64,000 nt of DNA from Stratiformator vulcanicus (GTDB lineage: Bacteria; Planctomycetota; Planctomycetia; Planctomycetales; Planctomycetaceae): assembly GCF_007744515.1 (NCBI RefSeq), contig NZ_CP036268.1, positions 1,188,529 to 1,252,528 on the forward strand, given 5' to 3'. The notes beneath the pieces are model-generated. The model made no database searches, had not been told where the DNA came from, and worked only from the letters and a program-made list of their open reading frames with translations. Both the position numbers and the translations under genes were made by a program. Of this stretch, positions 28,837-32,484 are shown one piece after another (the stretch's first letter is position 1; each line of letters starts with the position of its first letter).

Positions 28837-31800
28837 ATGTCCCAGCACGCGCCGTCGCGTTCCCGGCCGAGCTCCATTTTCGACGATCGATCCGCTCGCA
28901 TGTTTGCGACCGTGGGGTTCGCCGATCGGGAACGCGCTGCCCGGCGGCTCGAAGACCTGTGTGATGGCGATGAGGCGCGGGCCGAGCTGGCGCGCTGCCT
29001 GCCCGCGCTCTTAGTCGCGCTTTCCGAAGCGGCAACCCCCGACGGTTCCCTCGTCAATTTCGAACGTTACGTCCTTGCGGCGGTCGATCGCGCTGCGCTG
29101 TTTCGGTATCTGGCCGAGCATCCCAGAGCCGTCGAAATCCTCGTTCGGCTTTTCATCAACAGCCAGTTCCTCACGGAGATCCTGCTCCGCAATCCTAATT
29201 ACCTCGAACGGCTGACCAACCACAAACGCATCGCCGACGTCAAATCGCGAGAGGAGTTTTACGCCGAGGCTTACCTGTCTTCAAAAGCCCATCCGCCTGG
29301 TCGCGAACGGTTCGACGCCCTGCGGCGCTATCAACATTGGGAGTTGCTGCGCATCGGCGCTGGTGACTCGTTCGGCCTGCTCGACTTGAAGACGGTGACG
29401 GTGCAACTGTCCCTTTTGGCCGACAGCCTCGTGCGAGCCTGTCTGACCACACTCGCCGAGCAGGACGACATTTCGACCGACGGGTTCTGCATCGTCGCCT
29501 TCGGCAAGTTGGGTGGCGAGGAACTCAATTACAGTTCCGATATCGACCTCGTGTTCCTCGCCGATGGCGACGCGACCCGGTTTTGGAGCCTCGGCCAGAA
29601 GTTGATCAAAGCTCTCATGGAGGCGACCGGCGAGGGCTTTCTTTATCGCGTCGACATGCGACTGCGGCCTTGGGGACGCTCCGGAGCGCTCGTCAACACG
29701 GTCGAATCGCACCTGAACTATCTGCACAAACATGGGCAAGCCTGGGAAAAGCAGGCCATGCTCAAGGCCCGCGTGATCGCCGGCGACGAACCGGTTGGAC
29801 TGAAGTTTCTGTCCGGTGCCGAACCACTGATTTACAGACTCCAGCCGGACGAAATTCGCCTCTCGGTCCGCGAATCGAAAGAGAAGATCGAGGCGGAGTT
29901 GGAACGCAAAGGGCGACTGTGGGGTGAAGTCAAAAGTGGCGCCGGGTCGATCCGCGATATCGAATTCGTCGTGCAGTCGCTGCAACTGATCCACGGCCGC
30001 GACGTCCCGGGCGTCCGCAGCTTCAACACCGTTGATGCCCTGCGACGTCTGGCTGATTTCAGCCTGCTGCAAGCTGACGAATACCGCCAACTCGTCGGAG
30101 GCTACAACTTCTTGCGGACCGTGGAACACTCCATTCAACTCATGCACCACAAGCAGACGCACACGCTTCCGCAGGATCGGCGTGAACTGGCATACCTCGC
30201 CCGCCGGCTCGATTACCCCGATGCCGACAGCTTCCGAAACCACTACGAGAAACACGTCGAAACGATCCGCGCGATCTATCTCAGGTATGTCGGCGATGAA
30301 TCAACCGGCGAACCTTCCGATGAGGTCGAAGCAACGCCGGGACTCGCCGATCACCTGTGGCGGACGGAGGACTCATACCGCCAGGTCTTCAGCGATGACG
30401 ATCGCAAACTGCACGCCCGCATGATCCGCCGGCTCTCGACCGAAAACACCGTCGAAGTCGACGCGATTTTGCAGCCCGACGGCCGGTGGCGGGTGACGGT
30501 CGCCGGACTCAACAGCGTCGGCGACCTGTCGATGATCTGCGGACTACTGTTTGTCTACGGGTTTGACATCCTCAACGGGCATGTCTTCACCGATTCCCCC
30601 GTATCGGGCCGCCGCCCGGTTTCCGGCTTCAGCAAGGGCGAATTCGTCAACGTCTTTACGGTCACGCCGCCGCCCGAAGAAGTCACGCCGAACAAATGGA
30701 TTCAATTCGAACAAGACCTTGAATCCTTCGTCGGACTGGTCGTCGGAAACCACCGCGCCGAAGCGCAAGGGCGACTCGCCAAACGCGTGGCCGAAGTCCT
30801 CCGCGAAGTGCGTGAAGACGCAACCGAAGAGGCGCTGCTGCCGGTCGAAATTGATATCGACAACGATGCGTCTGAACTCTTCACCGTGCTGCACATTCAG
30901 GCCGAAGACACCATCGGGTTCCTCTATGAACTAACCAACGCCCTCGCGATGTCGGGCTATGACGTCGGCCGCGTCATCGTTTCGACGACCGGCAACCGGG
31001 TCTTCGACACCTTGTACGTCACCGATCCGAACGGCCGAAAGATCACCGCCGAAGACGACCTTCGCCGACTCCGCGCCGCCGTCGTGCTAATTAAGAATTT
31101 CACGCACCTTTTGCCAAGGTCGCCCAATCCGGAAGCAGCCCTCATTCACTTTCGCGAACTCGTCGAACAACTGTTTCGCCAAGAGAACTGGCTCGATGAC
31201 CTCGCCCGTTTAGAGCAGTCAAAAGTACTCGATGGTCTGGCCCGGCTACTGGGCATCAGCGATTTTTTATGGGAAGATTTTCTGCGGCTGCAATACGCCA
31301 CCCTTTTGCCGGTTGTGACCGATATCGAGGGTTTGGCAGAAACGAAAGATCGCAACCGACTCGGCCGCGAACTGGCGGAGGTTCTTGATGAACCACTCGT
31401 CGGCAAAGGCTCTGCGCACGAGACTCTTAAGCGTCGGCTTAACGACTTTAAAGATCGTGAGATGTTCCGTGTCGACATGCGGCACATCTTGGGAAACATC
31501 GAAGAGTTCGGGCAGTTTTCGGACGAATTAACAGCGATTGCCGAAACCGTCGTCGACGCCGCCTACCGACTTGCCTTAAACGATCTTCATAGTCGCTACG
31601 GCACGCCGTGCTTGGAATCGGGTGAGGACTGTCCCCTCACGATCGCCGCGCTCGGCAAATGCGGCGGACGCGAACTCGGCTTTGCCTCCGACATCGAATT
31701 AATGTTCCTCTACGGCGGCGGGGGCCGTACCGACGGAGACGAATCGATCCGCAACAGCGAGTTCTTCACTCGCCTGATCGAACTGTTTAACAGCACGATC

Positions 31801-32484
31801 GAATCGCGGCAGGAAGGCATTTTTCAAGTCGACCTCCGACTGCGGCCTTACGGCCGAGCAGGCAGCCCGGCCGTGCCAGTTGATGCCTTCGAAACCTACT
31901 TTTCGCCCACCGGGCCGGCATGGCCCTTCGAGCGTCAGGCTCTCGTGAAATTCCGGCCGATCGCCGGCGATGTCGACTTCGGCTACACGCTGCTCGGGAT
32001 TCGCGACCGGCTGATCTACACGGGCGAACCATTCGACGCCACCGCCATGCGGGCCATGCGCGAGAAGCAAGTCCGCCAACTCGTTCAAGCCGGAACCTTT
32101 AATGCAAAACTTAGCCCCGGCGGCTTAGTCGATACCGAATACCTCGTCCAAGGGCTGCAGATCACCCACGGCAGTTTCTTCCCGCCTGTTCGATCGACAA
32201 ACACGCTCGAAGCCCTCTCCGCCCTCAGCGACGCCGGCATCGTTCCCGCTGCGGTCTATGAACGCCTCGTCGACGCCTATATTTTTCAACGCCGATTAAT
32301 CGACGCCCTCCGCATGGTCCGGGGCAACGCCCGCGATTTAACGGTGCCGTCAGCGGCGGATGAAAAATTCGACTTCCTCGCCCGCCGCCTCGGCTACGGC
32401 AACTCCGTTACCGATCTCGCCAAAGACATCGAACGCCAAACCGCGGTGGTTCAAGAAATGGTCGGGCTGCTCGGGTTGCGTTGA
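28837..32484 (+). CDS. glnE: GlnE-type glutamine synthetase adenylyltransferase/deadenylase with internal ACT-like region
   Basis: A 1215-residue protein with two nucleotidyltransferase units. The first has [20 protein letters not shown] near residue 222 and [15 protein letters not shown]; the second has [20 protein letters not shown] near 938 and [16 protein letters not shown]. Each is followed by its helical domain ([10 protein letters not shown] in the second). This is the GlnE plan of adenylylating and de-adenylylating glutamine synthetase to tune nitrogen assimilation. E. coli GlnE has about 946 residues; the extra length is a ~230-residue segment (about 535-765) between the halves. Its second part, [20 protein letters not shown] then [16 protein letters not shown], looks like an ACT domain as found at the GlnD C terminus, and a weaker first repeat begins [19 protein letters not shown]. 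It may bind glutamine directly (inference). Start ATG 28837. Confidence 0.92.

What the first reader, a model, noticed from the sequence alone, without database searches (positions are those of the whole stretch)
30430..31130. GlnE with a built-in ACT-like sensor between its two catalytic halves
Seen: a ~230-residue insert at residues 535-765 with a clear ACT-like repeat ([20 protein letters not shown]) and a weaker one before it. Known: in enterobacteria GlnE is controlled by PII, and glutamine is sensed by the ACT pair of GlnD. Inference: here the sensing domain is fused into GlnE itself, possibly letting glutamine or another amino acid directly switch adenylylation and deadenylylation. If the genome lacks a separate GlnD, this would be a compact alternative nitrogen-control circuit.
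Basis: partly seen in the sequence, partly recalled or inferred. Interest (0 to 1): 0.6.

Follow-up and report, generated by a model that had tools for sequence, protein, structure and literature searches.

The report
GlnE with built-in GlnD-type ACT sensor
The enzyme that switches glutamine synthetase on and off carries, between its two catalytic halves, a pair of amino-acid-sensing domains of the kind normally found in a separate nitrogen sensor; this version occurs in a family of Planctomycetes and in many Chloroflexota, where it may replace the usual multi-protein cascade.

Summary
GlnE (28837-32484, +) carries two ACT domains (residues ~551-636 and ~683-761) between its catalytic halves, homologous to the C-terminal ACT pair of GlnD (E 5.5e-14 to 1.6e-16) and modelled at pLDDT 91. 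The halves stand 469-482 residues apart in 12 family members, 274-335 in 31 other Planctomycetota.

ACT-GlnE was found in 32 of 33 genomes of the window's family and in the 80 relatives kept of 242 found elsewhere, 44 of them named Chloroflexota.

The 'no GlnD' idea fails for this genome: it has GlnD with its own ACT pair, two PII genes upstream, and a glutamine synthetase with the adenylylation tyrosine. It holds in relatives: 44 of 44 Chloroflexota genomes with ACT-GlnE show no GlnD, 38 of 44 no canonical PII; the other six PII lack the uridylylated tyrosine. In 26 of 44, glnA lies within 8 kb.

Best reading: an old fusion letting GlnE sense an amino acid, probably glutamine, directly; one more input here, perhaps the main sensor in Anaerolineae. 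Ligand and effect are untested. Caveats: 44 of 99 Planctomycetota with ordinary GlnE also lack GlnD; most genomes are MAGs.

The parts
28837..32484 (+). glnE, 1215 aa, bifunctional glutamine synthetase adenylyltransferase/adenylyl-removing enzyme
   Evidence: PF03710 two stretches, PF08335 two stretches, NCBIfam PRK11072 507.2 bits over its cut-off of 487
29137..29811 (+). N-terminal catalytic (by homology, deadenylylation) nucleotidyltransferase domain, residues 101-325, motif [16 protein letters not shown]
   Evidence: PF03710 E 1.3e-54; motif read; role of the half in E. coli from PMC12409994 passages
30424..31146 (+). insert, residues about 530-770, absent from ordinary GlnE
   Evidence: inter-domain distance 469-482 aa against 274-335 aa; 24 of 24 ordinary planctomycete GlnE in the alignment have only 41-63 residues in the 201 ACT positions
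30487..30744 (+). ACT domain 1, residues 551-636
   Evidence: model ma3a7731c04f3; loop D and G found in at least 90% of 81 sequences, but the window's own protein has N in place of the D
30754..30819 (+). linker helix between the two ACT units, residues 640-661
   Evidence: model
30883..31119 (+). ACT domain 2, residues 683-761, contains [20 protein letters not shown]
   Evidence: Pfam ACT E 8.8e-5, GlnD models E down to 1.6e-16; model; loop D invariant and G at least 90% in 81 sequences
31237..31992 (+). C-terminal catalytic (by homology, adenylylation) nucleotidyltransferase domain, residues about 801-1052, motif [16 protein letters not shown]
   Evidence: PF03710 E 1.1e-46; D and E of SDIEL invariant in 74 sequences; ACT+C-half model matches E. 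coli GlnE C-terminal domain 3k7d E 5.0e-19

Best explanation
The insert is a GlnD-type tandem ACT regulatory module, probably fused once, early in the history of this GlnE lineage, directly in front of the C-terminal (adenylylating) half. It most likely binds a free amino acid, glutamine being the first candidate, and shifts the enzyme towards adenylylation (inactivation) of glutamine synthetase when that amino acid is plentiful. In the window's organism it adds a direct metabolite input to a complete GlnD-PII cascade; in Anaerolineae, where the same GlnE occurs without GlnD and mostly without canonical PII, it would be the main nitrogen sensor of the enzyme. Shown: architecture, homology to GlnD ACT pairs, fold model, conservation, distribution, presence or absence of GlnD/PII/GS genes in the genomes searched. 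Inferred: ligand binding, ligand identity, direction of the switch.
For: GlnD-specific models match the insert and hhalign links it to this genome's own GlnD tail. Confident two-ACT model; the best second-look structural matches are aspartate kinase 3l76 Z 10.8 over 152 residues, threonine deaminase 8y1j Z 9.6 and 9d2r (isoleucine-bound) Z 9.0, all known for regulatory ACT regions (recalled), and lower down CASTOR1-arginine Z 7.0. Loop D and G conserved in both repeats in at least 90% of 81 sequences. Present in 32 of 33 family genomes; 77 of the 80 relatives kept show N-half, ACT pair, C-half in that order; 3 begin at the ACT pair, 2 of them cut by a contig end. In the 8 uncut examples from other planctomycete families the ACT pair directly precedes the C-half, also where the N-half is missing (G071, G348, G102, G034) or placed after it (G251). 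In the 44 Chloroflexota genomes and one unnamed (L241) PF03710 finds no further GlnE apart from a fragment in G421; glnA lies within 8 kb in 26 of the 44; the aligned adenylylation tyrosine is present in 30 of 30 GS read (29 Chloroflexota, 1 unnamed), so the substrate is very probably GS. No GlnD in 44 of 44, no canonical PII in 38 of 44; the 6 canonical PII lack the tyrosine that GlnD modifies.
Against: No ligand or activity data. The window's own genome has GlnD, PII and GS, so no 'compact circuit' there. The window's own ACT1 has N where the family has the loop D. GlnD absence is not special to ACT-GlnE: 44 of 99 Planctomycetota genomes with ordinary GlnE lack it, whereas 35 of 41 with ACT-GlnE have it (for the genomes outside the family; for the 32 of the family). 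PII-like proteins (21.6-33.3 bits) occur in 14 of the 44 Chloroflexota and could stand in for PII. Pfam ACT hits are below Pfam's cut-off and Foldseek gives no match below E 0.001 with the insert model. Most of these relatives are MAGs by title, and completeness is not given.
Confidence: 0.68

Rival explanations
1. The ACT pair senses an amino acid other than glutamine, or a GS feedback product, and so reports a different aspect of nitrogen status.
For: Structural neighbours were solved with isoleucine (9d2r) and arginine (5gs9) bound. The ACT2 loop differs from that of this genome's GlnD: D-T[11 protein letters not shown] consensus in GlnE, N-R-R-G-L-L-Y-T-I-A-T-A-L in the GlnD.
Against: The closest relatives by sequence are the ACT pairs of GlnD, considered the glutamine sensors of GlnD (PMC3173338 passages).
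Confidence: 0.25
2. The ACT pair no longer binds a ligand: it serves dimerisation, spacing of the two catalytic halves, or docking of PII or GS.
For: Present where PII and GlnD are complete, so a new sensor is not needed; the window's own ACT1 has lost the usual loop D; ACT folds often act in oligomerisation (general knowledge, not tested).
Against: Loop D and G conserved in both repeats in at least 90% of 81 sequences; kept in Chloroflexota genomes in which neither GlnD nor canonical PII was found.
Confidence: 0.18
3. The insert is an ordinary helical linker of GlnE misread as ACT.
For: E. coli GlnE has a central regulatory domain between its halves (PMC12409994 passages); Pfam ACT score is below cut-off.
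Against: Two beta-alpha-beta-beta-alpha units at pLDDT 91, GlnD-model matches, about 190 extra residues.
Confidence: 0.01

Closest known systems
E. coli GlnE (GS adenylyltransferase/adenylyl-removing enzyme; PDB 1v4a N-terminal, 3k7d C-terminal)
   Same: Two homologous catalytic halves; sequence and fold matches.
   Different: E. coli GlnE has a central regulatory domain between its halves (passages) and is allosterically regulated by GlnB/GlnK, their uridylylated forms and glutamine (passages). That it has no ACT pair is recalled; I made no alignment with the full E. coli sequence. The comparison made here is with ordinary planctomycete GlnE.
GlnD (PII uridylyltransferase) C-terminal ACT pair
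   Same: Closest sequence relatives of the insert; tandem ACT pair of a nucleotidyltransferase of nitrogen control.
   Different: In GlnD it lies at the C-terminus and the enzyme acts on PII; here it lies in the middle, and the Pfam and NCBIfam scans show no HD domain. GlnE and GlnD pairs fall on two sides of one branch (44 against 31 rows, SH-aLRT 100), so a recent copy from the organism's own GlnD is not supported.
Plant ACR11/ACR12 (stand-alone ACT pairs)
   Same: GlnD-like ACT pairs; ACR11 is coexpressed with a glutamine synthetase gene (PMC3173338 passages). A Pfam model of the related ACR9 (ACT_ACR9_3rd) hits the insert below cut-off.
   Different: Separate chloroplast proteins composed of ACT domains only.

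Membership tests
GlnE (GS adenylyltransferase) | Two PF03710 nucleotidyltransferase halves, with GlnD_UR_UTase (PF08335) domains | tested here: met
   PF03710 186.5 and 160.4 bits; PF08335 two stretches; PRK11072 507.2 bits, cut-off 487
GlnE (GS adenylyltransferase) | Catalytic G-G...D-h-[DE] motif in both halves | tested here: met
   SDIDL (N-half) and SDIEL (C-half); D and E invariant in 74 C-halves. The motif rule itself is recalled
GlnE (GS adenylyltransferase) | Substrate GS with the adenylylation tyrosine in the genome | tested here: met
   GS in L043 has DIYDLGPDE; aligned tyrosine in 30 of 30 GS of relatives (29 Chloroflexota, 1 unnamed). That this is the adenylylation site is recalled
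GlnE (GS adenylyltransferase) | Measured AT and AR activity, regulation by PII | not testable with these tools
   needs enzyme assays
GlnD-type ACT pair | Tandem ACT fold | tested here: met
   model pLDDT 91.1 with two ACT-like units; VIA-align Z 10.8, 9.6 and 9.0 with 3l76, 8y1j, 9d2r; Foldseek alone no match below E 0.001
GlnD-type ACT pair | Sequence homology to GlnD C-terminus | tested here: met
   E 1.6e-16 to 5.5e-14 with three GlnD models, hhalign E 1.7e-8
GlnD-type ACT pair | Glutamine binding | not testable with these tools
   only loop conservation seen; the window's ACT1 has N for the usual D
GlnD (whole protein) | Single nucleotidyltransferase + HD domain + C-terminal ACT pair | tested here: not met
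   no HD domain in Pfam/NCBIfam scans; GlnD models far below their cut-offs
GlnD-free nitrogen circuit | No GlnD in the window's genome | tested here: not met
   GlnD at C1:4526329-4528830, 540.9 bits, over cut-off
GlnD-free nitrogen circuit | No GlnD in Chloroflexota relatives with ACT-GlnE | tested here: met
   44 of 44 genomes: best hits of the GlnD model are the GlnE itself or short pieces of other frames; genomes mostly MAGs of unstated completeness

The most novel reading that the evidence does not exclude
In Anaerolineae and kin, one protein replaces the two-cycle GlnD-PII-GlnE cascade: ACT-GlnE reads glutamine itself and adenylylates or deadenylylates GS without GlnD and, in most, without PII; in some other Planctomycetota it is reduced further to an ACT pair plus a single adenylyltransferase half.
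Probability: 0.5. Interest if true: 0.75.

Novelty: new variant of a known kind. Interest (0 to 1): 0.6.

Why it matters
GS adenylylation in E. coli is the textbook bicyclic cascade. A GlnE with a GlnD-type sensor pair built in, kept in Chloroflexota in which no GlnD and mostly no PII is found, would show how the cascade can be collapsed into one protein, and gives a compact system in which sensor, writer and eraser can be studied together. It also gives a concrete, testable function to a domain that family annotation passes over.

Tried and rejected
Ordinary helical linker: rejected. Recent copying of the ACT pair from the organism's own GlnD: not supported, GlnE and GlnD pairs separate as two sides of one branch (quick tree, unrooted, short domain, long branches flagged by the program; 31 of 34 GlnD loci entered, 3 dropped because my script picked a wrong frame or found no ACT hit; 31 of the 80 relatives were picked; the cut L250 was left out by a score limit). 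GlnD-less window genome: rejected. 'ACT replaces GlnD' as a rule in Planctomycetota: rejected, 35 of 41 ACT-GlnE genomes keep GlnD and 44 of 99 ordinary-GlnE genomes lack it (GlnD counted as present at E 1e-50 or better).

PDB sequence search with the insert alone found nothing meaningful (best E 0.044, a biofilm-related protein). Foldseek with the insert model gave no match below E 0.001. A paper that I wanted on GlnD domain mutants (PMC2876476) is not held.

Literature: none of the titles listed is about a GlnE with an ACT domain. One search (adenylyltransferase, ACT domain, glutamine synthetase, GlnE together) found 0 papers. Lists were cut (25 of 30; 20 of 30; 20 of 41; 15 of 132). The library holds open-licence papers only. 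I saw passages of three papers and only the listing of the rest.

Full report
What is there. The gene at 28837-32484 (+) encodes a 1215-residue GlnE: two PF03710 halves, two GlnD_UR_UTase stretches and an over-cut-off match to the GlnE equivalog PRK11072. Between the halves lies an insert (residues ~530-770) which NCBIfam GlnD models match over the GlnD C-terminal region: E 1.6e-16 (PRK05092), 1.7e-14 (PRK03381), 5.5e-14 (TIGR01693), and two weaker (about 1e-5). The Pfam ACT matches are weaker (E 5.1e-5 and 8.8e-5) and below Pfam's cut-off. A profile of 81 inserts matches this genome's own GlnD tail with E 1.7e-8.

Fold. An AlphaFold2 model of residues 541-775 from 81 sequences has pLDDT 91.1 and two beta-alpha-beta-beta-alpha units. 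Foldseek alone gives no match below E 0.001, but among its candidates VIA-align ranks first aspartate kinase 3l76 (Z 10.8), threonine deaminase 8y1j (Z 9.6) and the E. coli threonine dehydratase regulatory domain 9d2r (Z 9.0; two more entries of that enzyme 8.6 and 8.1), then a ciliary microtubule entry (Z 7.5) and CASTOR1 with arginine (Z 7.0); Z below 8 can be background according to the tool. That the first ones align through their ACT regions is recalled from their known folds and fits the aligned ranges. A model of residues 505-1215 (74 sequences, pLDDT 90.7, pTM 0.88) matches the E. coli GlnE C-terminal (3k7d, E 5.0e-19) and N-terminal (1v4a, E 5.7e-19) domains.

Conservation. In 81 sequences the ACT2 loop D is invariant and its G at least 90% conserved; the ACT1 loop D and G are at least 90% conserved, but the window's own ACT1 has N for D.

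Insertion, not a linker. Where both PF03710 domains are listed (capped list; for the window) the distance between them is 469-482 residues in 12 of 12 members of the window's family and 274-335 in 31 of 31 others. In a joint alignment 24 of 24 ordinary planctomycete GlnE have only 41-63 residues in the 201 ACT positions.

Distribution. In 392 Planctomycetota genomes, 140 have a PF03710 match. The insert profile finds ACT-GlnE in 32 of 33 genomes of the window's family (the exception, G369, has no PF03710 match) and in 9 genomes of other families; its weaker matches are GlnD ACT regions. A scan of genome contigs (84,980 species) confirmed 242 encoded relatives; the best 80 were kept. Of these 80, 77 show N-half, ACT pair, C-half in that order, some cut by contig ends; three start at the ACT pair (L207 and L229 cut by the contig end; L228 not cut). 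By record title 44 of the 80 are Chloroflexota, 30 Planctomycetota, 1 each Nitrospinota, Spirochaetales, Thermoanaerobaculia, Abditibacteriales, and 2 without a phylum name (L199, L241). The titles were not checked by a genome tree.

Variants. In the 8 uncut cases outside the window's family the ACT pair directly precedes the C-half: ACT plus C-half alone in G071 (802-aa frame), G348 (804), G102 (1091, with an unassigned C-terminal stretch) and G034 (1150), each with a single PF03710 match in the genome (99, 97, 98 and 95% complete; G034 8% contaminated); ACT, C-half, N-half in G251 (one contig of a MAG-like assembly of 410 contigs); N-half, ACT, C-half in G004, G172 and G238. G372 is cut. This points to a functional link of the ACT pair with the C-half, which in E. 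coli adenylylates (PMC12409994 passages).

Origin. On a tree of 75 ACT regions, 44 GlnE and 31 GlnD fall on two sides of one branch (SH-aLRT 100; quick tree, nine long end branches flagged). On a tree of the catalytic halves without the ACT columns, 37 ACT-GlnE and 24 ordinary planctomycete GlnE also fall on two sides of one branch (SH-aLRT 100). One fusion is the simplest reading; the Chloroflexota and Planctomycetota copies would then share an origin by descent or transfer.

The window's circuit. The genome has GlnD (540.9 bits, over cut-off; frame of 899 aa, HD motif and ACT pair read by eye), two PII genes directly upstream of glnD on the same strand, both with the T-loop tyrosine (QYRGAEY, HYRGTDY), and a GS with DIYDLGPDE. 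The premise of a missing GlnD is refuted here. Of 14 further family genomes searched for PII, 14 have it.

The relatives' circuit. I searched GlnD in the 49 genomes of the loci not titled Planctomycetota, L199 left aside: real GlnD in three (Nitrospinota, Thermoanaerobaculia, Spirochaetales titles) and a partial one in the Abditibacteriales; in the 44 Chloroflexota and the unnamed L241 the hits are the GlnE itself or short pieces of other frames. PII: 6 of 44 Chloroflexota have a strong match (85.6-100.3 bits), 14 only weak ones (21.6-33.3 bits), 24 none; L241's genome has PII. Five of the weak ones could be read and lack the PII T-loop motif; for four others the script printed other frames. 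The six strong PII have no tyrosine at the aligned T-loop position. GS is found in 43 of the 45 genomes (44 Chloroflexota and L241); in 26 of the 44 it lies on the same contig within 8 kb of the ACT-GlnE; 30 of 30 main GS read (29 Chloroflexota, 1 from L241's genome) have the tyrosine (two divergent second GS were set aside). PF03710 finds no GlnE besides the ACT-GlnE in these 45 genomes, apart from one fragment in G421, whose GlnE contig is cut. Completeness is not given for these genomes, most of which are MAGs by title; G433 is Anaerolinea thermolimosa strain IMO-1, not titled MAG, with no GlnD and only weak PII hits (30.3 and 26 bits).

Against a simple story. In Planctomycetota 35 of 41 ACT-GlnE genomes keep GlnD, and 44 of 99 ordinary-GlnE genomes lack it, so ACT-GlnE and GlnD loss are not coupled there. 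PII was found in 4 of the 6 GlnD-less ACT-GlnE planctomycetes (G071, G102, G348, G372; none in G034 and G251).

Mechanism. ACT pairs of GlnD are considered its glutamine sensors (PMC3173338 passages), and E. coli GlnE is also regulated allosterically by glutamine (PMC5448240 passages). The most likely mechanism is amino-acid, probably glutamine, binding at the ACT pair that activates the adjacent adenylylating half and/or restrains the other. Ligand and sign are inference. Eight literature searches (four of the lists cut) in an open-access library listed no title on such a GlnE.

Noticed in passing
L247, L248, L249, L251 (G071, G348, G102, G034): GlnE reduced to ACT pair plus C-terminal half, with no second PF03710 match anywhere in the genome: a possible adenylylation-only enzyme.
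   Followed up: partly
L256:4293-8135 (-), G251: GlnE with halves in swapped order: ACT pair, C-half, N-half in one 1281-aa frame of one contig.
   Followed up: partly
L046:1292-3001 (-), own genome C1 about 3419800: SulP-type transporter ORF with a C-terminal PII-like domain (42.6 bits), next to two beta-carbonic-anhydrase-like ORFs; PII hits in 664-700 aa frames also in G022, G142, G258, G270, G385. Transporter and anhydrase names from reading the sequence, not from a scan.
   Followed up: no
L270, L271, L273, L274, L275, L276: The canonical PII of six GlnD-less Chloroflexota lack the T-loop tyrosine that GlnD uridylylates.
   Followed up: partly
Planctomycetota, 44 of 99 genomes with ordinary GlnE: Ordinary GlnE without GlnD is common in this phylum; how it is regulated is unclear.
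   Followed up: no
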